This document shows positions 1,424 to 12,659 of a DNA stretch of 64,000 bases, piece by piece. Under the pieces are notes generated by a model, which was given only the letters and a program-made list of their open reading frames with translations, did not search any database and was not told where the DNA came from. The stretch is from Empedobacter sedimenti. Its GTDB lineage: Bacteria; Bacteroidota; Bacteroidia; Flavobacteriales; Weeksellaceae. The stretch is taken from NCBI RefSeq assembly GCF_030005555.1, contig NZ_JASCQG010000010.1:62001-126000 (forward strand), written 5' to 3'. How positions within the stretch are numbered: position 1 is the first letter of the stretch; every line of letters begins with the position of its first letter. Made by a program: the position numbers and the translations under genes.

Positions 1424-2644
1424 TTATTCTTCTGTTTCTTCCTCCTCATCATAATACTGAAAAAGGAAATTATTGTAAGGAAAACGTTTTGTGTGAATAT
1501 TTTTCACTTCTTCATAAATTGTTTTGCGTAGCTCCTCTAAATTATCTTTTTCTGTTGCAGAAATAAATAATGTTGGATAATCTGTCTTAGCAAACCAAGT
1601 ACGTTTCCAATCTTCAAGCGAATAATTTTCGAATTTCTTTTCAGTCAAATCATCATCATCTTGTTTAACATACGAAAAATTATCTATTTTATTAAAAACC
1701 ATCACAGTAGGCTTTTCTTTAGATTCTATTTCGGCTAAAATTTGATTCACAGAATTGACATGATCCTCAAAACTTGGATGCGAAATATCTACAACATGCA
1801 CCAACAAATCTGCTTCACGAACCTCATCTAACGTAGATTTAAAAGACTCTACTAATTGAGTTGGCAACTTGCGAATAAATCCTACTGTATCCGTTAATAA
1901 AAAAGGCAAATTACCAATTACAACCTTACGAACTGTTGTATCTAATGTCGCAAATAATTTATTTTCAGCAAAAACCTCTGACTTAGATAAAACATTCATT
2001 AACGTAGATTTACCCACATTTGTATAACCAACTAAAGAAACACGAACCAATTGTCCACGATTCTTACGTTGAGTAGCCATTTGTTTATCAATACCTTTCA
2101 GTTTCTCTTTCAGTAATGTGATACGATCACGAATAATACGTCTATCCGTTTCAATTTCCGTTTCTCCAGGCCCACGCATACCAATACCTCCACGCTGACG
2201 CTCTAAATGGGTCCACATACGTGTTAATCGTGGTAATAAATATTGATATTGTGCCAACTCTACTTGCGTACGCGCATATGAAGTTTGCGCACGTTGAGCA
2301 AAAATATCTAAAATCAACTGTGTTCTATCAATAATTTTTCGATTCACCACTTTCTCAATATTTTTCAATTGAGAAGGAGTTAATTCGTCATCAAAAATAA
2401 CCGTATCTATATCATACTCTTCTACAAAAGCTGTGATTTCATCTAACTTTCCGCTTCCTACAAAAAATTTAGAATCTGGTCGATCCATTTTTTGAGTAAA
2501 ACGTTCTCCAACTGTAGCTCCTGCTGTATAAGCTAAGAACTCCAATTCGTCCATGTATTCAGTCAGTTTTTCCTCAGATTGTTCACGAGTGATCAATCCT
2601 ACTAAAACAACTTTTTCGTATTGTGTTTCTTGTTTTTCTAACAT
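1424..2644 (-). CDS. hflX: GTPase HflX
   Basis: HflX is a ribosome-associated translational GTPase that splits stalled or hibernating ribosomes, known mainly from heat-stress work in other bacteria. The 406-residue protein has the N-terminal HflX domain (VGSGKLDEI near residue 62, the glycine-rich linker RQRGGIGMRGPGETEIETDRR near 149-169) and then a G domain: P-loop GYTNVGKS (206-213), TLDTT (233-237), DTVG (252-255) and NKID (about 318). The acidic C-terminal tail (DEEEETEE) is unremarkable. A TATTTTTG -7 box sits only 9 bp before the ATG, so the mRNA leader would be very short. It is divergent from the his operon. Confidence 0.96.
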   Translation of the reverse strand: MLEKQETQYEKVVLVGLITREQSEEKLTEYMDELEFLAYTAGATVGERFTQKMDRPDSKFFVGSGKLDEITAFVEEYDIDTVIFDDELTPSQLKNIEKVVNRKIIDRTQLILDIFAQRAQTSYARTQVELAQYQYLLPRLTRMWTHLERQRGGIGMRGPGETEIETDRRIIRDRITLLKEKLKGIDKQMATQRKNRGQLVRVSLVGYTNVGKSTLMNVLSKSEVFAENKLFATLDTTVRKVVIGNLPFLLTDTVGFIRKLPTQLVESFKSTLDEVREADLLVHVVDISHPSFEDHVNSVNQILAEIESKEKPTVMVFNKIDNFSYVKQDDDDLTEKKFENYSLEDWKRTWFAKTDYPTLFISATEKDNLEELRKTIYEEVKNIHTKRFPYNNFLFQYYDEEEETEE

Positions 2645-2653
2645 ATATTACTG

Positions 2654-2661
2654 CAAAAATA
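2654..2661 (-). promoter_or_regulatory. Putative -7 promoter box for hflX
   Basis: On the minus strand the sequence is TATTTTTG, an exact match to the Bacteroidota -7 consensus TAnnTTTG. It lies 9 bp before the hflX start codon. No clear TTG is seen at the expected upstream distance. Confidence 0.45.
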
Positions 2662-2820
2662 AAGTAAAGTTTTTGATGTAACAGAACTTTAGTAAAAATC
2701 TTGCCATTTTATAGATTTAATCAAAATCAATTACAAATTAACCTTTTTTAAAATTATTTAGAACAAAAAAGCTATTACATTTCAATAAAACTAAACTTTT
2801 TCTTTTTTTTAAATTATTCA

Positions 2821-2850
2821 TTGTCAATTGAAATATACTTTATAAATTTG
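2821..2850 (+). promoter_or_regulatory. Promoter of the his operon
   Basis: TTG at 2821-2823, a 19-bp spacer, then TAAATTTG at 2843-2850 fit the Bacteroidota sigma-factor consensus TTG-N19-TAnnTTTG. Transcription would start a few bases after 2850, putting the leader-peptide ATG (2870) about 12-15 nt into the mRNA. Confidence 0.75.
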
Positions 2851-2869
2851 TTTCAACAAAAAAGTAAAA

Positions 2870-2926
2870 ATGTACACAATTCAGTTCCATCATCATCATT
2901 ATCATACTTGCACTCAAGCGAGCTGA
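2870..2926 (+). CDS. hisL: his operon leader peptide (histidine attenuator)
   Basis: This short frame encodes MYTIQFHHHHYHTCTQAS and a TGA stop. Five of its 18 residues are His, four in a row followed by Tyr-His, which is the hallmark of a his attenuation leader. It begins just after the promoter and ends 31 nt before the attenuator stem. Family knowledge: when charged tRNA-His is scarce the ribosome stalls on the His codons and an antiterminator forms. Here the antiterminator's 5' strand (2912-2920) is the last part of the leader frame, so a ribosome finishing at the stop codon would mask it, while one stalled on the His run (2888-2905) would leave it free. The name hisL is by function; no sequence homology to the enterobacterial leader is implied. 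Confidence 0.88.
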   Translation: MYTIQFHHHHYHTCTQAS

Positions 2927-2972
2927 TTGTGATATGGACATGTGTCAATGATATATCAAATCCCGTTTGAGT
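2912..2972 (+). promoter_or_regulatory. Antiterminator pairing of the his leader
   Basis: ACTCAAGCG at 2912-2920 can pair with CGTTTGAGT at 2964-2972 (nine pairs, one of them G-U). The second segment is also the 5' strand and loop of the terminator, so the two structures exclude each other, as attenuation requires. Confidence 0.7.
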
Positions 2973-2993
2973 AAATCGAACGGGATTTTTTTA
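2958..2993 (+). terminator. his attenuator (intrinsic terminator upstream of hisG)
   Basis: AAATCCCGTT (2958-2967) pairs with AACGGGATTT (2979-2988) around a short loop and is followed by a T run. It lies between the leader peptide and hisG (start 3052), where it can stop transcription before the structural genes. Confidence 0.88.
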
Positions 2994-3029
2994 TTCTTTC
3001 AAATTAAAAACTTTTCGATTTACTCAAAC
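2965..3029 (+). promoter_or_regulatory. Second long inverted repeat in the his leader
   Basis: GTTTGAGTAAATCGAA (2965-2980) is perfectly complementary to TTCGATTTACTCAAAC (3014-3029). This 16-bp pairing uses the attenuator's 5' strand and loop and ends 22 nt before the hisG start codon. It can only form in transcripts that have already passed the attenuator. The pairing is direct observation; its role is unknown. Confidence 0.7.
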
Positions 3030-3051
3030 TTAAAAATATAAAATACTATAA

Positions 3052-3909
3052 ATGAGTAAATTAAAAATAGCCATTCAGAAAAGTGGTCGATTAAGTGAAA
3101 AATCACTCGAATTATTAAAAGATTGCGGGATTAAAATCTCAACAAGTAATCGAAAACTAAGAACAGAATCTCCAAATTTCCCTATCGAAGTTTTATTTTT
3201 ACGCGACGATGATATTCCTCAATATGTAGAGCAAGGCGTTGCTGACATCGGAATTTTAGGTGAAAATGAAGTATGGGAAAAAGATAAAGATGTTGCACAA
3301 ATTCGTCAATTAGGATTTGCAGCATGCAAATTATGTTTAGCTATTCCTAAAGATGAAATTTATACTGATTTAAGTTATTTTCAGGATAAAAAAATCGCGA
3401 CTTCTTATCCGAAAATTCTTCAAAAATTCTTCGACGAGAAAGAAATCAATGTCAAAATTGAAGAAATTGGCGGAAGCGTAGAAATTGCGCCAAGTATTGG
3501 TCTTGCAAATGCTATTTTTGATATTGTGTCTACAGGTTCTACTCTACTTACAAACGGTTTGAAACAAGTTGAAACTGTTGTTGAATCTCAAGCTGTTTTA
3601 ATTGCAAATAAAAATCTTGACGCTGAAAAACAAGCTATTGTAGATCGTCTTTTATTCAGAATTGAAGCAGTAAAACAATCTTCTGAGAATAAATACATTT
3701 TATTAAATGCACCAAACGAAAAACTAGAAGAAATCATTGCTTTATTACCTGGAATGAAATCTCCAACCGTTTTACCATTGGCCGAAGAAGGGTGGTCATC
3801 TATCCACACCGTCATTAAAGAAGATACTTTTTGGGACATCATCGAACAATTGAAAGCTTTAGGTGCCGAAGGAATTTTAGTGTTAGAAATTGAGAAAATG
3901 ATTTTATAA
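3052..3909 (+). CDS. hisG: ATP phosphoribosyltransferase, long form
   Basis: HisG catalyses the first committed step of histidine synthesis: PRPP plus ATP gives phosphoribosyl-ATP. The 285-residue length is that of the long, hexameric form with a C-terminal ACT-like regulatory domain; the short form, which needs HisZ, is about 200 residues. Visible landmarks are LKIAIQKSGRLSEKSLELLKDCGI at the N-terminus, DIGILGENE near residue 71, the PRPP-binding stretch DIVSTGSTLLTNGL near residue 158, and the C-terminal domain with PGMKSPTVLPL and a closing beta strand. It is the first structural gene after the attenuator. The long form is normally inhibited by histidine, giving a second level of control. 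Confidence 0.97.
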   Translation: MSKLKIAIQKSGRLSEKSLELLKDCGIKISTSNRKLRTESPNFPIEVLFLRDDDIPQYVEQGVADIGILGENEVWEKDKDVAQIRQLGFAACKLCLAIPKDEIYTDLSYFQDKKIATSYPKILQKFFDEKEINVKIEEIGGSVEIAPSIGLANAIFDIVSTGSTLLTNGLKQVETVVESQAVLIANKNLDAEKQAIVDRLLFRIEAVKQSSENKYILLNAPNEKLEEIIALLPGMKSPTVLPLAEEGWSSIHTVIKEDTFWDIIEQLKALGAEGILVLEIEKMIL

Positions 3910-3914
3910 TTTTT

Positions 3915-3975
3915 GATTGACGATTTACAATTTACGATTGAATCGTAATTCGTAATTCTAAAATCGTAATTCGTA
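3915..3975 (+). repeat. Heptad repeat island 1 (hisG-hisD spacer)
   Basis: The spacer is almost entirely in-phase 7-nt units. The forward arm is GATTGAC, GATTTAC, AATTTAC, GATTGAA (3915-3942). The reverse arm is AATCGTA, ATTCGTA, ATTCTAA, AATCGTA, ATTCGTA (3941-3975). The arms are complementary (AATCGTA is the reverse complement of TACGATT), with TTACGATT/AATCGTAA at the junction, so the spacer RNA should fold into a hairpin. Confidence 0.9.
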
Positions 3976-3980
3976 ACAAA

Positions 3981-5267
3981 ATGCAAACATACATTAACCC
4001 TCAACTTTCGGATTGGTCAGACTTAACGGCTCGACCAACGAAAGAAGCACAAGATTTACAAAAGATCGTTTTAGATGTTTTTGGAAAGATTCAAACCAAA
4101 AAAGATCAAGCTTTAATTGATTTTACCGAACAATTTGACAAAGTTAAATTAACTTCTTTGGAAGTTGCTACAGAAGAAATTGAAGAAGCAAAAAGCTTAA
4201 TTTCTGAAGAATTGAAACAAGCGATCCAATTAGCCGCTTCGAATATTGAGAAATTTCACGCTGCTCAACGAGAAGAAATTCAAACCATTGAAACAACGAA
4301 AGGTGTGAATTGTTGGAGAGAATCTCGCGGAATTGAAAATGTTGGAATTTACATTCCTGGTGGAACAGCTCCTTTATTTTCTACAACGTTAATGTTAGGA
4401 ATTCCTGCAAAATTGGCGGGTTGTCAAAATATTATTTTATGTACGCCTCCTAACAAAGAAGGAAAAATTCACCCAGCAATATTATATACTGCGAACTTAA
4501 TCGGAATTGAGAAAATCTACAAAATCGGTGGAATTCAAGCGATTGGCGCATTAACTTTTGGAACAGAAACCATTCAGAAAGTCGATAAAATATTCGGTCC
4601 TGGAAATCAATATGTAACTGCTGCAAAACAAGTTGCTCAAAATTTTGGCGTTGCGATTGATATGCCCGCTGGTCCAAGCGAAGTTTTAGTGATTGCAGAT
4701 GAAACCTCTGTTCCTAAATATGTTGCTGCTGATTTATTATCACAAGCTGAACACGGAATTGATTCTCAAGTGATTTTATTAACAACAAGTGAAAAAATTC
4801 TAACTGAAACCATTGTAGAAATTAATGCTCAACTAAAAGTTCTTCCAAGAAAAGAATTAGCTGCTCAAGCTTTAGAAAATTCAAGAGGAATTGTATTGAA
4901 TTCTATCAATGAATGCGTAAGTTTTTCTAATATTTATGCACCAGAGCACTTAATCTTTGCTTGCGAAACAGCTGAAGAATATATTGATAAAATCATCAAT
5001 GCAGGTTCTGTTTTCTTAGGAAATTATTCGTGCGAATCGGCAGGAGATTATGCGTCAGGAACTAATCATACCTTACCAACAAATGGTTATGCGAAAAACT
5101 ATTCGGGCGTCTCTTTGGACAGTTTCATCAAGAAAATCACGTTTCAGAAATTAACAGCAGAGGGAATTCAAAACATTGGTCCAGCAATCGAATTAATGGC
5201 GGAAGCCGAAGAATTATTTGCGCACAAAAATGCAGTGACTTTAAGACTAAATGATCTAAAATCGTAA
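3981..5267 (+). CDS. hisD: Histidinol dehydrogenase
   Basis: HisD oxidises L-histidinol to L-histidine in two NAD-dependent steps, the last reactions of the pathway, with a bound zinc ion. The 428-residue protein is of normal length and shows family signatures: YIPGGTAPLFSTTLML near residue 120, the stretch from KVDKIFGPGNQYVTAAK to MPAGPSEVLVIADE, LLSQAEHGIDSQ (conserved His and Gln), YAPEHLIF, and SAGDYASGTNHTLPTNGYA. The last codons (CTA AAA TCG TAA) are part of heptad island 2, so the C-terminal residues come from repeat sequence. Second gene of the his operon. Confidence 0.97.
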   Translation: MQTYINPQLSDWSDLTARPTKEAQDLQKIVLDVFGKIQTKKDQALIDFTEQFDKVKLTSLEVATEEIEEAKSLISEELKQAIQLAASNIEKFHAAQREEIQTIETTKGVNCWRESRGIENVGIYIPGGTAPLFSTTLMLGIPAKLAGCQNIILCTPPNKEGKIHPAILYTANLIGIEKIYKIGGIQAIGALTFGTETIQKVDKIFGPGNQYVTAAKQVAQNFGVAIDMPAGPSEVLVIADETSVPKYVAADLLSQAEHGIDSQVILLTTSEKILTETIVEINAQLKVLPRKELAAQALENSRGIVLNSINECVSFSNIYAPEHLIFACETAEEYIDKIINAGSVFLGNYSCESAGDYASGTNHTLPTNGYAKNYSGVSLDSFIKKITFQKLTAEGIQNIGPAIELMAEAEELFAHKNAVTLRLNDLKS

Positions 5268-5287
5268 ATCGTAATTCAAAAATTGTA
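5253..5287 (+). repeat. Heptad repeat island 2 (hisD-hisC spacer, reverse arm only)
   Basis: Five in-phase heptads GATCTAA, AATCGTA, AATCGTA, ATTCAAA, AATTGTA run from inside the end of hisD to 2 nt before the hisC ATG. Unlike the other islands there is no forward (GATT) arm, so it cannot form its own hairpin. Confidence 0.85.
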
Positions 5288-5288
5288 A

Positions 5289-6335
5289 ATGAATACATTC
5301 AACATAAACAATATCATTCGTCCCAACGTAAAAGCAATGAAAGCGTATTCATCGGCTCGTGACGAATTTCAAGAAATAAATTACGATTTCGTTTTCTTAG
5401 ATGCAAACGAAAATCCGTTCAATAATGGATTAAATCGTTATCCAGATCCTTTGCAGCGCAATGTAAAATCGATTTTAAGTGAGTTGAAAAACTTTCCTGC
5501 GAATCAGATTTTATTAGGAAATGGCAGCGATGAAGTGTTGGATTTAATTTTTCGTGCCTTCTGCGAACCGAATCAAGATAATGTTATTGCGATTTCTCCT
5601 TCTTATGGAATGTACGGAGTTTTAGCTAATCTAAATGCAATTGAATACCGCAAATCATTATTAAACGAAGCCGATTTCCAACCTAACATCGAAGATATTT
5701 TCTCAAAAATTGATGACAACACAAAAATGATTTTCTTGTGTTCTCCGAACAATCCTACGGGAGAAATTATCAAAAGAGATTCGATTTTAGAAATTGTAAA
5801 ACGTTTCAATGGTTTAGTCATTATCGACGAAGCGTATATTGATTTTGCAAGTGAACCGTCTTTGATTGAAGAAATCAACAATTATCCTAACATAATCGTA
5901 ACGCAAACTCTATCGAAAGCCGTTGGTTTAGCCGGAATCCGTTTAGGAATTTTATATGCATCTAAAGAAATTGTTGATGTTTTAAATAAAATCAAACCTC
6001 CTTATAATATTAACCAATTAACGCAATTAAAAGCGATTGAAATTTTAAGCGATTACGATAAAGTGGTAGCTGCAACAAATACTATTATTCAACAAAAAGA
6101 AGTTTTAGAAAATGCTTTAACTGAGATTTCATTTGTAGAGAAAATATATCCAAGCGATGCCAATTTCATTTTAATTAAAGTAGATAATGCGAACGAACGT
6201 TACAATCAATTGGTTGAAAAAGGAATTGTTATTCGTAACCGAAACAACGATGATTTATGCAAGAATTGCTTACGTATAACTGTTGGAACGGAACTTGAAA
6301 ATCAGAAATTAACACAAACACTTAAAACAATATAA
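5289..6335 (+). CDS. hisC: Histidinol-phosphate aminotransferase
   Basis: HisC is a PLP enzyme of aminotransferase class I/II that converts imidazole-acetol phosphate and glutamate to histidinol phosphate. The 348-residue protein has FLDANENPF near residue 36, LLGNGSDEVLDLIFRAF near residue 75, SPNNPTGE near residue 151, IIDEAYIDF near residue 177 and the PLP-lysine motif TQTLSKAVGLAGIRLG near residue 205. A short C-terminus ends in LRITVGT followed by about 15 residues, as usual. The start codon follows heptad island 2 with 1 nt between. Confidence 0.97.
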   Translation: MNTFNINNIIRPNVKAMKAYSSARDEFQEINYDFVFLDANENPFNNGLNRYPDPLQRNVKSILSELKNFPANQILLGNGSDEVLDLIFRAFCEPNQDNVIAISPSYGMYGVLANLNAIEYRKSLLNEADFQPNIEDIFSKIDDNTKMIFLCSPNNPTGEIIKRDSILEIVKRFNGLVIIDEAYIDFASEPSLIEEINNYPNIIVTQTLSKAVGLAGIRLGILYASKEIVDVLNKIKPPYNINQLTQLKAIEILSDYDKVVAATNTIIQQKEVLENALTEISFVEKIYPSDANFILIKVDNANERYNQLVEKGIVIRNRNNDDLCKNCLRITVGTELENQKLTQTLKTI

Positions 6336-6340
6336 TTTAT

Positions 6341-6464
6341 GATTGGTGAATTACGAAGAATTATTTACGATTGTTGATAGACGATTTACGATTCTCTATA
6401 ATGGTAAATCTAAAATACTAACTCGTAAATTCTTTTAATCGTAAATCAAAAATCGTAAATCGTA
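6341..6464 (+). repeat. Heptad repeat island 3 (hisC-hisB spacer)
   Basis: Forward arm 6341-6396 has eight in-phase heptads, including GATTGGT, GAATTAC, TATTTAC, GATTGTT, GATAGAC and GATTTAC. Reverse arm 6400-6464 includes AATGGTA, AATCTAA, AATACTA, ACTCGTA, AATCAAA and AATCGTA (twice at the end), with a 2-nt phase slip at 6435. It fills most of the 142-nt spacer. Confidence 0.9.
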
Positions 6465-6477
6465 CATTAATTAAATT

Positions 6478-7611
6478 ATGAAAAAAATACTATTCATAGA
6501 CCGCGATGGAACAATGATTTTAGAGCCAGAAGATTATCAAGTTGATAACTTTTCGAAATTAGAATTCTATCCAGAAGCATTTACTTATTTAGGTAAAATT
6601 GCGAAAGAATTGGATTACGAATTGGCGATGGTAACCAACCAAGACGGTTTGGGAACACCTGCAAATCCGGAAGAATTGTTTTGGCCAATACAGAATTTCG
6701 TGGTAAAAGCTTTTGAAAATGAAGGCGTGAAGTTCACAGATATTTACATTGACAAAACTTTTGCGCACGAAAATGCACCAACACGTAAACCAGGAACAGC
6801 TTTATTGACGAAATACATCAATAATCCTGAATATGATTTAACTAATTCGTTTGTGATTGGTGATCGTATCACGGATGTTAAATTGGCTCAAAATCTTGGC
6901 GGAAAAGGAATTTTTATTGCAAATGATGAAGCTTTAGGCGCAGAAGAAATTAACGATAACGAAGGTTTGAATGATGCCATAGCTTTAAAAACAACTTCTT
7001 GGAAAGAGATTTATGAGTTCTTAAAACTTCAAAATCGTACCGCTTCTATCGTTCGAAACACCAATGAAACGAAAATCAAAATCGATTTAAATCTTGACGG
7101 AACTGGAAAATCGGATATTTCCACGGGTTTACACTTTTTCGATCACATGTTGGATCAAATTGCGCGTCACGGACAAATGGATTTAGTGATAAAAGTTGAT
7201 GGCGATTTAGAAGTTGACGAACACCACACGATTGAAGATACGGCGATTGCTTTGGGCGAAGTTTTTGGACAAGCTTTAGGCAATAAATTAGGTATCGAGC
7301 GTTACGGTTTTACATTGCCAATGGACGATTGTTTGGCGCAAGCAGCGATTGATTTTGGTGGAAGAAATTGGTTGGTCTGGGAAGCGGATTTTAAACGAGA
7401 AATGATTGGTCAAATGCCAACTGAAATGTTTTATCACTTCTTCAAATCATTTACGGACGGAGCAAAAGCCAACTTAAATATCAAAGCAGAAGGTACAAAT
7501 GAGCACCATAAAATCGAAGCGATTTTCAAAGCATTTGCCAAAGCGATTAAAGTGGCGGTGAAACGCGATCCAGAAAAAATGATTTTACCATCGACGAAAG
7601 GAATGTTATAA
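6478..7611 (+). CDS. hisB: Bifunctional histidinol-phosphatase / imidazoleglycerol-phosphate dehydratase
   Basis: The 377-residue protein fuses two activities. Residues 1-165 are a HAD phosphatase (FIDRDGT with Asp8 and Asp10; [31 protein letters not shown]) that converts histidinol phosphate to histidinol. From about residue 188 to the end is the manganese-dependent dehydratase ([57 protein letters not shown]). The zinc-binding Cys/His loop of the enterobacterial phosphatase domain is absent; the corresponding loop is [12 protein letters not shown]. Fusion of these two domains is common in Bacteroidota. It lies between heptad islands 3 and 4. Confidence 0.97.
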
Positions 7612-7617
7612 ATTTTA

Positions 7618-7690
7618 GATTGTAGAATTACGATTGACGATTATTTTGATTTTAAAATCGTAAATCTAAAATCTGAATTCGTAAATCAAA
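7618..7690 (+). repeat. Heptad repeat island 4 (hisB-hisH spacer)
   Basis: Forward arm: GATTGTA, GAATTAC, GATTGAC, GATTATT (7618-7645). Reverse arm: AATCGTA, AATCTAA, AATCTGA, ATTCGTA, AATCAAA (7656-7690), all in phase. It ends 4 nt before the hisH ATG. Confidence 0.9.
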
Positions 7691-7694
7691 ATAT

Positions 7695-8294
7695 ATGATA
7701 GCAATAGTAAAATACAACGCAGGAAATGTAAAATCGGTATACAATGCCGTAACTCGTTTGGGTTATGAAGCAGTAATCACAGACGATTTTGAAACCTTGC
7801 GAAACGCAGATAAAGTAATTTTCCCTGGTGTCGGAGAAGCGAGTTCGGCAATGGCTTATCTGAAAGAAAAAGGATTAGACAAAGTCATCAAAAATTTAAA
7901 ACAACCAACTTTAGGAATATGTTTAGGACAGCAATTGATGTGCGAATATTCGGAGGAAGGAAATACAAATTGTTTAGGAATTTTCCCAATTCAAGTAAAA
8001 TTATTTCCGTCAAAAGAAATCGTTCCTCACATGGGTTGGAATACCATTTATGATTTTCAAAATATCATCTATAATCTTCCAGCAAAATTATTTGAAAATG
8101 TTAAAGAAAACTCCGACATCTATTATGTACACAGCTATTATTGTGAATTATCTAATTTCACGATTGCTAAGACGAATTACATTTTAGAATATTCGGCTGC
8201 TTTACATAAAGATAATTTTTACGCAACTCAATTTCACCCAGAGAAATCAGCTGGAATTGGAGAACAGATATTGAAAAACTTTTTAAGTATTTAA
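7695..8294 (+). CDS. hisH: Imidazole glycerol phosphate synthase, glutaminase subunit
   Basis: HisH hydrolyses glutamine and passes ammonia to HisF in the IGP synthase complex. The 199-residue class I amidotransferase has the oxyanion segment PGVGE near residue 45, nucleophile Cys76 in LGICLGQQLM, and the rest of the catalytic triad in FHPEKS (His181, Glu183). PHMGWNTI near residue 111 is also characteristic. Its partner hisF is two genes downstream, beyond hisA and the inserted four-helix-bundle gene. Confidence 0.96.
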   Translation: MIAIVKYNAGNVKSVYNAVTRLGYEAVITDDFETLRNADKVIFPGVGEASSAMAYLKEKGLDKVIKNLKQPTLGICLGQQLMCEYSEEGNTNCLGIFPIQVKLFPSKEIVPHMGWNTIYDFQNIIYNLPAKLFENVKENSDIYYVHSYYCELSNFTIAKTNYILEYSAALHKDNFYATQFHPEKSAGIGEQILKNFLSI

Positions 8295-8295
8295 T

Positions 8296-8366
8296 TATTT
8301 ACGATTGTTGATTGACGAATTACGATTAAAAAATCTAAAATCGTAAATCTAAAATTATAAATCCTA
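8296..8366 (+). repeat. Heptad repeat island 5 (hisH-hisA spacer)
   Basis: Forward arm: TATTTAC, GATTGTT, GATTGAC, GAATTAC, GATTAAA (8296-8330). Reverse arm: AATCTAA, AATCGTA, AATCTAA, AATTATA, AATCCTA (8332-8366). The phase is strict in each arm, and the island begins 1 nt after the hisH stop codon. Confidence 0.9.
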
Positions 8367-8377
8367 AAATCAAACAT

Positions 8378-9091
8378 ATGAGAATCATCCCAGCAATAGA
8401 TATTATCGACGGAAAATGTGTTCGTTTATCACAAGGCGATTACGATACAAAAAAAATATACAACGAAAATCCATTGGAAGTTGCGAAAGAATTTGAGGAT
8501 TACGGCATTGAATATCTACACTTGGTGGATTTAGATGGAGCGAAATCAAAGCAAATCATAAATTATAAAACCTTAGAATTAATTACGTCTAAAACCAATT
8601 TAAGAGTTGATTTTGGAGGTGGAATTAAGGCAAATGATGATATCCGAATTGCTTTTGAATGTGGTGCTAATCAAATTACTGGAGGAAGTATTGCGGTTCA
8701 AAATCCGACGTTATTTCAGGAATGGATTAATCAATACGGAAGCGATAAAATCATTTTAGGCGCAGATGCTAAAGACCGAAAAATTGCTACTCACGGCTGG
8801 TTAGAAACTTCTGAATTGGATGTGATTGATTTTATCAAAGAATACAAAGCCAAAGGAATTGAGTATGTAATTTGTACAGACATCGCTAAAGATGGTATGT
8901 TACAAGGAACTTCAAACGAATTGTATGCAGAAATTTTAGCCGCTGCTGACATCAAATTAATTGCTTCGGGTGGTGTTTCTTCAATCGACGATTTAATTAA
9001 AGTGAAAGAATTAGGTTGCGAAGGAGCAATTTTAGGAAAAGCGATTTATGAAGGAAGAATAGATTTGAAGGATTTACGATTGTTGATTTAG
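8378..9091 (+). CDS. hisA: ProFAR isomerase (phosphoribosylformimino-AICAR-P isomerase)
   Basis: HisA performs the Amadori rearrangement of ProFAR to PRFAR. The 237-residue TIM barrel has two half-barrel phosphate-binding sites typical of HisA/HisF (VDFGGGIK near residue 76 and IASGGVSS near residue 195), with catalytic Asp in [13 protein letters not shown] at the N-terminus and in [10 protein letters not shown] near residue 167. The last residues, DLRLLI and the stop, are encoded by the heptads GATTTAC-GATTGTT-GATTTAG. The end of the gene has therefore been formed or replaced by the repeat that follows. Confidence 0.96.
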
Positions 9092-9210
9092 CGATTGACG
9101 ATTGATGATTGATGATTGATGATTATTAATAAATTTAAAAATCAAACATCGTAAATCTAGAACCGTAGATCCAAAATAAAGATTTCGTAAATTGTATCTC
9201 GTAAATCTAA
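9071..9210 (+). repeat. Heptad repeat island 6 (hisA to four-helix-bundle gene)
   Basis: The forward arm starts inside hisA: GATTTAC, GATTGTT, an 8-nt unit carrying the hisA stop, then GATTGAC, GATTGAT three times, GATTATT (to 9127). The reverse arm 9140-9210 has AATCAAA, CATCGTA, AATCTAG, AACCGTA, GATCCAA and so on to AATCTAA. This is the longest island and the only one with identical adjacent units in the forward arm. Confidence 0.9.
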
Positions 9211-9220
9211 AATTAATCTT

Positions 9221-9580
9221 ATGCAAGAGATCATTAAGAAAAGAACGAAGCAAGTTGGAATAGATATTATTCTTTTGATTCATCAATTCCCAAATTCAAT
9301 TGCAACTAGAGCTATTTCTAATCAAATCATCCGAAGTGCAACTTCAATTGGAGCAAACTATAGAGCTGCTTGCAGAGCTAAATCAACGGCAGATTTTATT
9401 AACAAACTGAAAATAGTTGAAGAAGAAACAGATGAAACCATTTATTGGTTAGAGATTTTAGAAGAATCCAAATTATTTCAATCACCAAAAATTAAAGAAC
9501 TTAAAATTGAACTCAATGAAATTTTATCAATCGTTGTAAGTTCAATAAAAACTTTGAGAAACAAACAGAATAAAACTTAA
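9221..9580 (+). CDS. Four-helix-bundle protein (23S rRNA intervening-sequence / Avd-like family) inside the his operon
   Basis: The 119-residue all-helical protein matches the four-helix-bundle family first known from ORFs in 23S rRNA intervening sequences and related to Avd of diversity-generating retroelements. Diagnostic parts are LIHQFPNSIATRAISNQIIRSATSIGANYREA-like helices (residues 21-54; here ANYRAACRAKS) and DFINKLKIVEEETDETIYWLEILEES (residues 59-85). Basic N-terminus, acidic middle and basic tail are visible. The family is basic-patch, pentamer-forming and binds nucleic acid in Avd; no enzymatic activity is known. It has no role in histidine synthesis, yet it is transcribed with the operon between hisA and hisF, with a complete heptad island on each side. 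No reverse transcriptase or variable repeat is nearby, so it is not a DGR. Confidence 0.88.
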   Translation: MQEIIKKRTKQVGIDIILLIHQFPNSIATRAISNQIIRSATSIGANYRAACRAKSTADFINKLKIVEEETDETIYWLEILEESKLFQSPKIKELKIELNEILSIVVSSIKTLRNKQNKT

Positions 9581-9646
9581 TATTTACGATTGATGATTTA
9601 AGATTAACAGTTGAAATACATCGTAAATCTGAATTCGTAAATCAAA
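9581..9646 (+). repeat. Heptad repeat island 7 (four-helix-bundle gene to hisF)
   Basis: Forward arm: TATTTAC, GATTGAT, GATTTAA, GATTAAC, AGTTGAA (9581-9615). Reverse arm: CATCGTA, AATCTGA, ATTCGTA, AATCAAA (9619-9646). It begins at the first base after the stop codon and ends 10 nt before hisF. Confidence 0.9.
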
Positions 9647-9656
9647 AATACAAACT

Positions 9657-10409
9657 GTGTTAAAAAAAAGAATCATTCCGTGTCTTGATATCAAAGATGG
9701 AAGAACGGTAAAAGGTGTTAATTTCGAAGGATTACGCGATGCGGGAGATCCAGTTGAATTGGCAAAAAAATATGTAGAAGAAGGCGCTGATGAATTGGTG
9801 TTTTTGGATATCACAGCAACCATTGAAAAACGTAAAACTTTGGCTGAAATGGTCGAAAAAATTGCTTCGGCGATTAATATTCCGTTTACAGTTGGTGGCG
9901 GAATCAATTCGGTGGAAGACGCTTCTGCGGTCATAAAAGCAGGTGCAGACAAAGTTTCAGTGAATTCCTCTGCTGTTAAAAACCCACAGTTAGTAGCTGA
10001 TTTAGCGGCTCGTTTTGGATCGCAATGTGTCGTAGTTGCAGTAGATACACGCAATGTGAACGGAACACAAAAAGTGTTTGTTAGCGGTGGAAAAATCGAA
10101 ACCGATTGGGAAACTTTGGATTGGGTAAAGAAAGTAGAAGAATTGGGCGCTGGCGAAATTCTATTAACTTCAATGGATGGTGATGGAACAAAAGCTGGTT
10201 TCAAAATTGATATTACTAAATCGGTTGCGGATATTGTAAATCTTCCAGTGATTGCCTCTGGTGGAGCAGGAAAAATGGAACATTTTACAGAAGTTTTTAC
10301 CCAAACTAAAGCGAGTGGTGGATTGGCGGCAAGTATTTTCCACTTTGGAGAAATTCCGATTCCGACGCTTAAAAATTATTTAAAAGAACAAAATATTCCG
10401 ATACGATGA
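9657..10409 (+). CDS. hisF: Imidazole glycerol phosphate synthase, cyclase subunit
   Basis: HisF is a TIM barrel that uses ammonia from HisH to turn PRFAR into imidazole glycerol phosphate and AICAR. The 250-residue protein starts with GTG and has [22 protein letters not shown] with catalytic Asp11, VGGGINS near residue 81, [10 protein letters not shown] near residue 100, and [12 protein letters not shown] near residue 171 with the second catalytic Asp. [14 protein letters not shown] is the C-terminal phosphate site. The GTG start directly precedes the conserved [10 protein letters not shown] motif. It overlaps hisIE by 4 nt, the only operon junction after hisG without a repeat island. Confidence 0.96.
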
Positions 10410-11017
10410 ACATCGATTTCAATAAAAGTAATGACGGATTAGTTCCTGTTATTATTCAAAATTATCTTAACAACAAGGTCTTGATGTTAGGTTATATGAA
10501 CGAAGAAGCATTCGAGAAAACCCAAGAAATTGGAAAAGTGACTTTCTATTCTCGTTCAAAAAATAGATTATGGACAAAAGGCGAAGAATCAGGTAATTTT
10601 TTAGAAGTGAAATCTATTGCAGTTGATTGCGACAACGATACGATTCTGATCAAAGCAAAACCATTTGGACCAACTTGCCACACAGGTTCTACGACTTGTT
10701 TTAATGAAGTTTCGAATCATGGATTTGTGTATGAATTAGAGCAAACTATTAATGATAGAATTGTTTTAGCCGAAGACAAAGATTCTTACACCTATAAACT
10801 ATATAATAAAGGTATTAACAAAATTGCCCAAAAAGTAGGTGAAGAAGCTGTAGAAATTGTAATTGAAGCGAAAGACAACAATGATGATCTTTTTTTGGGT
10901 GAAGCAGCCGATTTAATGTACCACTATTTAATTTTGTTAAAAGCGAAAGGTTTCAAATTAGAAGATGTAGAAAATGTCTTAAAATCGAGAGAAAATGGTC
11001 CGAGAAGATCAGAATAA
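10406..11017 (+). CDS. hisIE: Bifunctional phosphoribosyl-AMP cyclohydrolase / phosphoribosyl-ATP pyrophosphatase
   Basis: The 203-residue fusion carries steps 2 and 3 of the pathway. The N-terminal cyclohydrolase has [32 protein letters not shown], the metal-binding DCDNDT and paired cysteines in [12 protein letters not shown]. The C-terminal pyrophosphatase has the helical [14 protein letters not shown] and [15 protein letters not shown] acidic metal-binding segments. The ATGA overlap with hisF implies translational coupling. Last gene of the operon; a terminator follows. Confidence 0.97.
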
Positions 11018-11035
11018 ATACTTATAAACAAATTT

Positions 11036-11061
11036 AAGGTTGCTAAATAGCAACTTTTTTT
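11036..11061 (+). terminator. Terminator of the his operon
   Basis: GTTGCT (11039-11044) pairs with AGCAAC (11049-11054) around a four-base loop, followed by six T. It lies about 20 nt after the hisIE stop. Confidence 0.8.
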
Positions 11062-11137
11062 ATGCACAAAAAACTGATGTTTAGCAGAATTAACGAAAAT
11101 TAACCATTTTAATTAGAATTATTATAAATAAAAATAA

Positions 11138-11145
11138 TACTTTTG
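11138..11145 (+). promoter_or_regulatory. Putative -7 box for the ankyrin-PepSY-ApbE operon
   Basis: TACTTTTG matches TAnnTTTG and lies 50 nt before the ankyrin gene. No TTG was found at the expected upstream position, so support is limited to the -7 element. Confidence 0.45.
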
Positions 11146-11195
11146 AAATCAAATTAAAATTAGTCTAAATAATCATTACAATATATTCTATTCAT

Positions 11196-12659
11196 ATGAA
11201 AAAATTATTCATTTCTGTTGCTATTCTACTCGCTTCATTTATTCAGGCTCAAACTAATACCTTAATGGATGCTGGTTTCTGGAAAAACAATCCAACTATT
11301 GAAACTGTAAAAGCTGAAATTTCTAAAGGAAATAGCCCATCATTTCAAAATGGAGGTTTCTTCGATCCTGTTGTTATCGCGATTAACAATAAAGCAGATT
11401 TTAATGTGACTAAATTTTTAATAGAACAAGAAGGAAACTCTGTTGACAAGAAAACGCATCACTCAAGAATTTATCTTCAATGGGCTGCTGCAGCTGGAAA
11501 CTTAGAATTAGTAAATTATTTATTAGCCAAAGGTTCTGATGTTAATTATAAAGACAGCCACGGCGATGATGTAATTACTTATGCAGCTAGTGCAGGCAAT
11601 CAAAATATTGCGGTTTATGATGCTTTAATTAAAGCTGGTGCAAATCCAAAAGTAAAAGGAGAAAATGGCGCAAACTTAATTATGCAAGCGATTGCTGGTG
11701 ATAACGATTTGAAAGTTACTGAATATTTTATCTCGAAAGGGTTATCATTAAGCGAAAAAGATGCTAATGGACGTACTGTTGCAGACTACGCTGCCAAATT
11801 AGGAAACTTAACAATCATAGATAAATTAATTGTGAAAGGTGTAAAACCTACAGATCAAGCTTTATTTTTTGCCACTCAAGGTTCGAGAACAAAAGAAAAT
11901 GGTGTAGAAGTTTTCCAAGAATTAATTACAAAATATAAATTAAATCCGAAAGCGTTAAATCCGAATGGACAAACGTTATTACATGCTTTATCTCGCAGAG
12001 GAAACTCAGAAACAATCAATTTCATACTATCAAATGGTGTTGACGCTAAAGTTGCAGATAAAGAAGGAAACACTGCATTAATGATTGCTTCTGGTGGAAA
12101 AAATATAGAATTAATCAATACATTTTTATCAAAAGCAAATAATATCAATTCTGTAAATACAAACAGTGAATCTACTTTAACTAAAGCAGTTGCTTCAGGT
12201 ACTTCTCAAATCGTAGCTTTATTATTAGAGAAAGGTGCAAAAGCTGATATTGTAGATAAAGACGGAAATAATTTGGCTTTTTATTGGTTCAATTCTTTTA
12301 AACCAAATGACGAATCATTCGCAGAAAAACAAACTTTATTAACAAACGCGAAAGTTAATTTTAAAGCAACTCAAAGCAAAGGTGCAACTTTGTTACATAT
12401 TGCGGTTGATAAAGGAAACGTAAATTTGGTAAAAAAAGCAGTTGAGTTAGGTGTAAATATTAATGCACAAGACGAAGACGGAAATACAGCTTTACACAAA
12501 GCAGCTTTGATTGCAAAAGATGATACTATCTTGAAAACATTGGTTGCTGCTGGAGCGAAAAAAGATATTAAAACAGAATTTGAAGAAACAGCTTATGATT
12601 TAGCTGGAGAAAACGAATTTTTAAAGAAAAATAATGTGTCTATTGACTTTTTAAAATAA
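11196..12659 (+). CDS. Secreted ankyrin-repeat protein
   Basis: The 487-residue protein has a signal peptide (MKKLFISVAILLASFIQAQ) and then ankyrin repeats over nearly its full length. Examples are WAAAAGNLELVNYLLAKGSDVNYKDSHGDD near residue 92, VADYAAKLGNLTIIDKLIVKG near residue 195, TLLHALSRRGNSETINFILSNGVDAKVADKEG, and a C-terminal repeat TLLHIAVDKGNVNLVKKAVELGVNINAQDEDGNTALHKAA. Ankyrin repeats bind other proteins; no catalytic domain is visible. It lies 8 bp upstream of the DUF2271 gene in the same direction, so it is probably a periplasmic partner or scaffold of the flavin electron-transfer proteins that follow. That role is inferred from position only. Confidence 0.88.
   Translation: MKKLFISVAILLASFIQAQTNTLMDAGFWKNNPTIETVKAEISKGNSPSFQNGGFFDPVVIAINNKADFNVTKFLIEQEGNSVDKKTHHSRIYLQWAAAAGNLELVNYLLAKGSDVNYKDSHGDDVITYAASAGNQNIAVYDALIKAGANPKVKGENGANLIMQAIAGDNDLKVTEYFISKGLSLSEKDANGRTVADYAAKLGNLTIIDKLIVKGVKPTDQALFFATQGSRTKENGVEVFQELITKYKLNPKALNPNGQTLLHALSRRGNSETINFILSNGVDAKVADKEGNTALMIASGGKNIELINTFLSKANNINSVNTNSESTLTKAVASGTSQIVALLLEKGAKADIVDKDGNNLAFYWFNSFKPNDESFAEKQTLLTNAKVNFKATQSKGATLLHIAVDKGNVNLVKKAVELGVNINAQDEDGNTALHKAALIAKDDTILKTLVAAGAKKDIKTEFEETAYDLAGENEFLKKNNVSIDFLK

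What the first reader, a model, noticed from the sequence alone, without database searches (positions are those of the whole stretch)
3915..9646. Phased 7-nt repeat arrays fill seven consecutive spacers of the his operon
From the hisG-hisD spacer to the spacer before hisF, every junction consists of strictly 7-nt units. The forward arm has GATTnnn units (GATTTAC, GATTGAC, GATTGTT, GATTGAT, GAATTAC). The reverse arm has AATCnnn units (AATCGTA, AATCTAA, ATTCGTA, AATCAAA) that are complementary to the forward units. I checked the phase by position in all seven islands; it holds with only a few 1-2 nt slips (6435, 9092, 9189). Six islands have both arms, always forward then reverse along the transcript, so each spacer RNA should fold into a hairpin between a stop codon and the next start. 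The units vary in their last three bases, so this is not simple recent slippage. I noticed no such arrays outside the his operon. The pattern could space, insulate or stabilise cistrons, or be the footprint of an element that spreads by heptad expansion.
Basis: seen in the sequence. Interest (0 to 1): 0.85.

Follow-up and report, generated by a model that had tools for sequence, protein, structure and literature searches.

The report
Heptad hairpins: stems of intervening-sequence elements
The gaps between the histidine genes are filled with seven-letter repeats that look like the stems of a hairpin element known from ribosomal RNA genes, and similar stems flank that element's own gene in very different bacteria.

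Summary
The his spacers hold 7-nt arrays (GATTnnn, then AATCnnn); six of seven have both arms and four of seven fold better than nearly all shuffles. In 80 named relatives his spacers show the same 7-nt (less often 8-nt) period with other units: 145 of 298 his spacers against 16 of 247 other co-directional spacers.
The key is the ORF between hisA and hisF (9221-9580), a "23S rRNA intervening sequence protein" (IVP, PF05635). In 54 of 83 Bacteroidia IVP loci tested the two flanks are strongly complementary, against 3 of 106 control genes, and the usual period of the flanks is 7. Cyanobacterial IVPs have heptad flanks, and so has one IVP inside a 23S rRNA gene. In congeners the same his junction can be empty, array-filled or IVP-filled.
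Best reading: the islands are stems, mostly without the gene, of intervening-sequence (IVS)-like elements living between cistrons of an mRNA. Position, gain/loss and IVP link are shown; RNase III cutting, movement and any benefit are inferred. IVSs are described from rRNA genes; ten searches of an open-access library showed no paper linking them to heptad repeats.

The parts
3910..3980 (+). island 1, hisG-hisD: forward then reverse arm; whole spacer between stop and start
   Evidence: fold z -0.94; identical in congener G004
5245..5288 (+). island 2, hisD-hisC: reverse-arm units only, running over the hisD stop
   Evidence: 5255-5288 does not fold
6336..6477 (+). island 3, hisC-hisB: longest solo hairpin; the same junction is TAA-CT-TTG in G001, G002, G005 and holds an IVP in 8 congeners
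   Evidence: z -4.85
7612..7694 (+). island 4, hisB-hisH hairpin
   Evidence: z -3.03; genes overlap here in G001, G007, G009
8295..8377 (+). island 5, hisH-hisA hairpin
   Evidence: z -4.28
9070..9220 (+). island 6, 3' end of hisA to IVP: forward then reverse arms; the last hisA codons and its stop are array sequence
   Evidence: z -2.96 for 9064-9213
9221..9580 (+). IVP gene: S23 / 23S rRNA intervening-sequence protein, four-helix bundle, 119 aa
   Evidence: PF05635 E 4.5e-19, TIGR02436 E 7.5e-27, PDB 2rld E 5e-17
9581..9656 (+). island 7, IVP-hisF: forward and reverse arm; in the fold of 9064-9656 its last reverse units pair with the forward arm upstream of IVP
   Evidence: z -1.55

Best explanation
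The islands are the stems of intervening-sequence (IVS)-like elements that live between the cistrons of an operon mRNA. A full element is: forward arm of 7-nt units, IVP gene in the loop, complementary reverse arm; the window has one (around 9221-9580). The other islands are the same kind of hairpin without the gene. They lie exactly between a stop and the next start, sometimes supplying the stop, so no protein is broken. By analogy with rRNA, where RNase III cuts the IVS stem out without re-joining, the stem is probably cut by RNase III, splitting the polycistronic mRNA harmlessly. Shown: arrays, pairing potential, position, statistical association with IVP, presence/absence at the same junctions, several separate IVP lineages in his. 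Inferred: RNase III cutting, selfish or near-neutral status, mode of spread, growth of arms by 7-nt slippage kept complementary by pairing, and that solo hairpins and IVP elements are one family.
For: Upstream x downstream duplex z < -3 in 36 of 57 Flavobacteriia and 18 of 26 class-wide IVP loci (those with both flanks 20 nt or longer, of 62 and 29), against 3 of 80 and 0 of 26 control genes; 1 of 33 in their 70-180 aa subset. Best period among lags 4-12 is 7 in 34 of 53 upstream and 31 of 46 downstream IVP arms (Flavobacteriia), 20 of 26 and 15 of 23 (class), 10 of 10 and 7 of 8 (cyanobacterial plasmids; arms of 33 nt or more only); his spacers 172 of 333, the same shuffled 33 of 333. An IVP inside a 23S rRNA gene (Azospirillum L336, LSU 2520.7 bits) has a heptad stem, fold z -7.87. 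His is an IVP hot spot: 13 IVPs in 600,740 his bases, 0 in 939,181 flanking bases of the same 80 loci; 11 of 14 congeneric his operons hold one; 'in his' needs 6 changes on a 100-row IVP tree, at least 5 forced by well-supported branches. Same junction empty / solo / IVP at hisC-hisB, and solo / IVP at hisA-hisF and purF-purM. The solo purF-purM hairpins of G001 and G008 share 18 nt exactly with an arm of the IVP element L001 of the window's genome.
Against: The window's own IVP element folds only slightly better than shuffles (z -1.50, 9 of 100 as good), and its flanks also fold as two local hairpins. 21 of 57 and 8 of 26 IVP loci miss z -3; of ten cyanobacterial loci only five reach it. The own downstream flank is the best partner in only 21 of 59. 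Loci include orthologues, and the eight Flavobacteriia genomes were chosen because their his spacers showed arrays, so counts are neither independent nor unbiased. Sharing of units between solo arrays and IVP arms within one genome is thin: the window genome's purF-purM hairpin (itself weak, z -1.51) shares only 11 nt with L001; in Flavobacterium G015 two of three IVPs share 12-mers with its solo arrays, but so do 6 of 27 IVPs of other genomes, one of them more. Which came first, hairpin or IVP, is not settled. No RNA data.
Confidence: 0.67

Rival explanations
1. Host-useful hairpins: selection keeps a stem between cistrons to stabilise, insulate or process each cistron's mRNA; heptads are just how such stems grow (slippage), and IVP is a passenger that enters existing hairpins.
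For: Enrichment in his spacers over other co-directional spacers, and outermost pairs a median 3-8.5 nt after the stop, by junction; convergent spacers, where 3' hairpins are expected, also show lag 7; hairpins persist though units are replaced.
Against: G001, G002 and G009 lack stems at several or all his junctions; a stabiliser does not predict heptad flanks around IVP in a 23S rRNA gene and in cyanobacteria.
Confidence: 0.19
2. Plain slippage satellites: 7-nt tandem repeats arise by replication slippage and survive only in tolerant spacers; complementary arms come from quasi-palindrome correction.
For: MacGregor 2015, citing Mrazek 2007, reports heptamers as the most abundant class in most genomes and a polymerase-footprint idea (section read); perfect 7-nt arrays exist in this genome.
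Against: Does not explain forward-then-reverse order in six of seven islands, the IVP link, or the concentration in his.
Confidence: 0.09
3. Multivalent binding arrays: the pentameric IVP (or another RNA-binding protein) reads units at 7-8 nt steps, as TRAP reads its triplets (TRAP recalled).
For: Solved IVP relatives 2gsc and 2rld each have five chains; in several families a 4-5 nt core looks steadier than the other positions (by eye).
Against: Cores differ completely between species and elements; no binding data.
Confidence: 0.05

Closest known systems
Intervening sequences (IVS) of 16S/23S rRNA with S23p/IVP ORF (e.g. Coxiella, Leptospira; PMC4990558)
   Same: IVP-family ORF in the loop of a long stem; sporadic presence at one site; carried in the host transcript; insertion where it breaks nothing.
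   Different: Here in operon mRNA between cistrons, not rRNA; most copies lack the ORF; arms are tandem 7-nt units (seen here also in one 23S IVS, Azospirillum). RNase III cutting not tested.
Heptanucleotide STRRs of cyanobacteria
   Same: Tandem 7-nt units in intergenic DNA; in ten cyanobacterial plasmid loci such units flank IVP genes.
   Different: Other unit sequences (GGGAGTA, GGGAACA, AAAAGCT there; GATTnnn here). That these are the published STRR units is recalled, not tested.
Nostoc tRNA-Leu intron P6b degenerate heptanucleotide repeats (PMC3488679, passages seen)
   Same: Degenerate heptads that pair into a hairpin.
   Different: Inside an intron, single locus.
GGGAATC heptamers of Xanthomonas (PMC4692102, passages seen)
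   Same: Mostly intergenic, mostly between co-directional ORFs, often near stop codons; 70 and 75 inverted pairs in two genomes.
   Different: Read there as G-quadruplex repeats; no IVP link in the passages seen, though X. campestris has a solved IVP (2gsc).
TAACTGA heptamer repeats (PMC4679880, abstract and sections seen)
   Same: Heptamers close upstream of starts, also in five Bacteroidetes.
   Different: Direct repeats of one unit (169 direct sets, one indirect, in the main genome); read as regulator sites.
REP/BIME palindromes (recalled)
   Same: Palindromes at 3' ends, between co-directional and convergent genes.
   Different: Here the GATTnnn unit is confined to one operon and periodic.

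Membership tests
rRNA IVS | IVP/S23p ORF inside the element | tested here: met
   9221-9580, PF05635; met for one element only, the other islands have no ORF
rRNA IVS | terminal complementary stem enclosing the ORF | tested here: inconclusive
   window: the MFE pairs outer arms but overall z is -1.50; clearer in relatives
rRNA IVS | lies within a 16S or 23S rRNA gene | tested here: not met
   lies between his genes; no rRNA family hit in 2600-11200
rRNA IVS | excised by RNase III without ligation | not testable with these tools
   needs RNA
rRNA IVS | sporadic presence at a fixed site among relatives | tested here: met
cyanobacterial STRR | tandem heptanucleotides in intergenic DNA | tested here: met
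cyanobacterial STRR | many copies of one unit dispersed in the genome (definition recalled) | tested here: not met
   GATTnnn x3 confined to his plus one tandem repeat
REP/BIME | dispersed multi-copy palindrome (definition recalled) | tested here: not met
TAACTGA repeats | TAACTGA unit in direct orientation | tested here: not met
   units listed

The most novel reading that the evidence does not exclude
One class of RNA-hairpin element, the IVS with a heptad stem and an IVP gene that is often lost, underlies many 'heptanucleotide repeat' families of bacteria (cyanobacterial STRRs, Nostoc P6b, Xanthomonas GGGAATC, Bacteroidota spacers). It inserts into rRNA and operon spacers alike, and the 7-nt step is set by the element's own replication or by the IVP ring.
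Probability: 0.3. Interest if true: 0.92.

Novelty: new variant of a known kind. Interest (0 to 1): 0.8.

Why it matters
IVSs are described as parasites of rRNA genes and the S23/four-helix-bundle protein as one of unknown function; heptanucleotide repeats were a separate puzzle. If the link holds, IVS-like elements sit in operon mRNAs of many Bacteroidia (IVP in 95 of 119 genomes sampled), part of the excess of heptamer repeats in bacteria gets a source, and old questions (how an IVS moves, what IVP does) become testable in cultured Flavobacterium and Nostoc by RNA end mapping.

Tried and rejected
Stop codons in all three frames as the purpose of period 7: 96 of 307 his spacers against 85.7 in shuffles, rejected. 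A strict 'core plus exactly three variable bases' rule: seen by eye in several families, but others (e.g. GTATTGA in L309, CCTAAnn in L311) do not fit, so not claimed. Rfam on 2600-11200: three hits below gathering score, ignored. IVP in phages: no match in 50,697 records to one IVP query. IVP always co-oriented with its neighbours: 58 of 62 in Flavobacteriia by script (exceptions L235 and L258 look mis-called, L264 and L283 unresolved), 21 of 29 in the class, but antisense to both neighbours in cyanobacterial L326, L328, L331, so no general rule. A first IVP flank test had minus-strand loci unturned and is superseded. The first tree count (7 changes, 6 forced) left his IVP L234 unlabelled; one search corrects it to 6 and 5. 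A looser array scan of 300 kb of the own genome gave 44 hits, 15 inside ORFs and many AT-rich, so only strict scans are used. Prior-art searches: (open-access PMC only); the listings seen showed no paper linking IVP or IVS to heptad repeats; most listed papers were not opened.
Full report
Where it is. The window is G000:C2:62001-126000 of a 3.24-Mb genome. Its closest named relatives in the his search are Faecalibacter and Empedobacter. The operon runs hisG 3052, hisD 3981, hisC 5289, hisB 6478, hisH 7695, hisA 8378, an ORF at 9221-9580, hisF 9657, hisIE 10406. hisF and hisIE overlap by 4 nt and carry no island.

The observation. Of lags 2-30, only lag 7 gives windows of 0.66 self-match or more in the 64 kb. 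In the islands 17 of 19 GATT steps and 13 of 15 AATC steps of 28 nt or less are multiples of 7. Fold z-scores are -0.94, +0.23, -4.85, -3.03, -4.28, -2.96 and -1.55 for the seven islands in order. GATTnnn x3 is found in the whole genome only in his and in one perfect tandem repeat at C3:152265; the tool's backward control pattern had 36 hits. A strict scan of 819 kb of the genome (window included) gives 13 islands at lag 7, three of them in his, and 0-5 at seven other lags.

Relatives. Eighty named his loci (the best 80 of 594, itself a capped list) give 341 spacers of 30-300 nt: self-match above shuffles +11.4% at lag 7, +5.0 at 8, +7.5 at 14, +4.2 at 21, at most +1.6 elsewhere; 277 other co-directional spacers of the same loci +0.9% at lag 7, 110 convergent +4.9%, 142 divergent -0.8%. 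Per spacer of 40-260 nt, lag 7 is beaten or equalled by at most 1 of 100 shuffles in 145 of 298 his, 16 of 247 other co-directional, 21 of 97 convergent and 1 of 134 divergent spacers. Folding alone separates less: z < -2 in 175 of 298, 111 of 247, 85 of 97 and 26 of 134. Units differ between species: TAAGTnnn (8 nt), TAAGnnn, AACCnnn, GTTTCAG, AAGCTTA and so on (by eye; part of the output was cut). Other palindromes fill some his spacers too.

Congeners. Fourteen genomes of the genus show the same junction in different states. hisC-hisB is TAA-CT-TTG in G001, G002 and G005, an array hairpin in the window species, another palindrome in G004, an overlap in G009, and an IVP between arrays in eight (G003, G006, G007, G008, G010, G011, G012, G013). 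hisB-hisH overlaps in G001, G007 and G009 and is 46-126 nt in the other eleven. hisA-hisF is one nucleotide in G004. G009, the most divergent, has no his gap above 1 nt. Arrays can run into the upstream gene: the window's hisA ends in GATTTACGATTGTTGATTTAG.

The ORF. 9221-9580 is an IVP: PF05635 E 4.5e-19, TIGR02436 E 7.5e-27, PDB 2rld E 5e-17. A profile of 27 IVPs finds 2gsc (X. campestris XCC0516) and 2rld, each with five chains. Three other IVPs scanned, not the window's, match the retroelement accessory protein Avd below its cut-off. Eleven of 14 congeneric his operons hold an IVP, at hisC-hisB or hisA-hisF. In the 80 named loci an IVP profile finds 13 IVPs, all inside his (600,740 bases), none in 939,181 flanking bases. 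On a tree of 100 IVPs 'in his' needs 6 changes, at least 5 by well-supported branches (correcting); one clade (window, L096, L086, L080, L056, L077) is his-only but sits at three different junctions. The tree has few columns and many unresolved forks.

IVP flanks elsewhere. PF05635 genes were searched in the genus, in eight other Flavobacteriia genomes chosen because their his spacers showed arrays, and in 119 Bacteroidia genomes (95 with a hit); loci came for the best matches only. In 62 Flavobacteriia loci (59 usable) the median duplex of the two flanking spacers is -23.3 against -9.2 kcal/mol when swapped between loci; the own partner is best in 21 of 59 and in the top three in 28 of 59. 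In 29 class-wide loci: -28.2 against -12.5, own best in 17 of 29. Against composition shuffles z < -3 in 36 of 57 and 18 of 26; control genes 3 of 80 and 0 of 26, and 1 of 33 in their 70-180 aa subset. Best lag of arms of 33 nt or more is 7 in 34 of 53, 31 of 46, 20 of 26 and 15 of 23. Many loci are orthologues, so these counts overstate independence.

Outside Bacteroidota. An IVP query against plasmids hit 36 records, mostly Nostoc, Calothrix and other cyanobacteria. I read 12 of the 36. In the ten cyanobacterial ones the best lag is 7 in 10 of 10 upstream and 7 of 8 measurable downstream arms, with units such as GGGAGTA, GGGAACA and AAAAGCT; complementarity reaches z < -3 in five of ten, and in L328, L329, L330, L331 and L333 it does not. 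The Azospirillum IVP lies in an LSU rRNA gene (274-3312 of L336, 2520.7 bits); its arms, whose limits I set by eye, are AGAGGAC-type heptads and the element folds with z -7.87, arms closing the stem. It is the only 23S IVS examined. The Gemmatirosa IVP has G-rich repeats on one side and C-rich repeats on the other (by eye).

Purine operon. In 399 kb of the own genome three of five period-7 islands lie in purL-purC and purF-purM. At purF-purM, seven of 14 congeners (own included) have a solo 7-nt array, three an IVP, three a different short palindrome, one neither; none is empty. The window genome's own copy folds weakly (z -1.51) and shares 11 nt with its IVP element L001; those of G001 and G008 share 18 nt with that L001 arm.

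Mechanism. Shown: period, position, order of arms, presence and absence at fixed his junctions, IVP in the loop position with complementary flanks in about two thirds of loci, several IVP lineages in his. Inferred: RNase III cuts the stem, as in rRNA IVSs (PMC4990558: abstract, introduction and passages read); the element is selfish or near neutral; arms grow by 7-nt slippage and stay complementary. Open: whether IVP elements lose their gene or IVP enters existing hairpins; how either moves; why his and pur attract them.

Papers. PMC4990558 as above; PMC4679880 abstract, sections 3, 11, 12 and passages; PMC3488679 passages; PMC4692102 passages; PMC2408588 passages; PMC6749651 passages; PMC5524665 passages. 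STRR naming, REP biology and TRAP are recalled.

Noticed in passing
window 2870-2993: A short ORF MYTIQFHHHHYHTCTQAS (read by eye) followed by an inverted repeat and T run just upstream of hisG looks like a his attenuation leader; no Rfam his leader was reported.
   Followed up: no
L029 11810-14929 and congeners G002, G003, G004, G005, G012, G013: A ~3.2 kb insert between hisH and hisA; in L029 it holds one 1039-aa ORF (protease-like by eye, not searched); the window species lacks it.
   Followed up: partly
L033 (Soonwooa): HisB-H-A-F-IE are 86-88% identical to the window's but HisG-D-C only 42-63%, and its hisC-hisB and hisB-hisH spacers carry the window's GATTnnn unit: likely transfer of half an operon with its spacers.
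   Followed up: no
L327 and L330 (Pseudanabaena, Anabaena plasmids): IVP genes with heptad flanks sit between cas6 and cas4.
   Followed up: no
L124 4012-4534; G004 hisC-hisB; L078, L099: A second palindrome family (GTCATTCCGAG...GAATGAC type) also fills his and pur spacers, so these spacers hold several palindromic elements.
   Followed up: no
G000:C3:152265-152366 and ends of C5, C10, C21: Perfect 7-nt tandem repeats (AAATCTA, ATCACTT) in the window's genome outside the hairpins.
   Followed up: no
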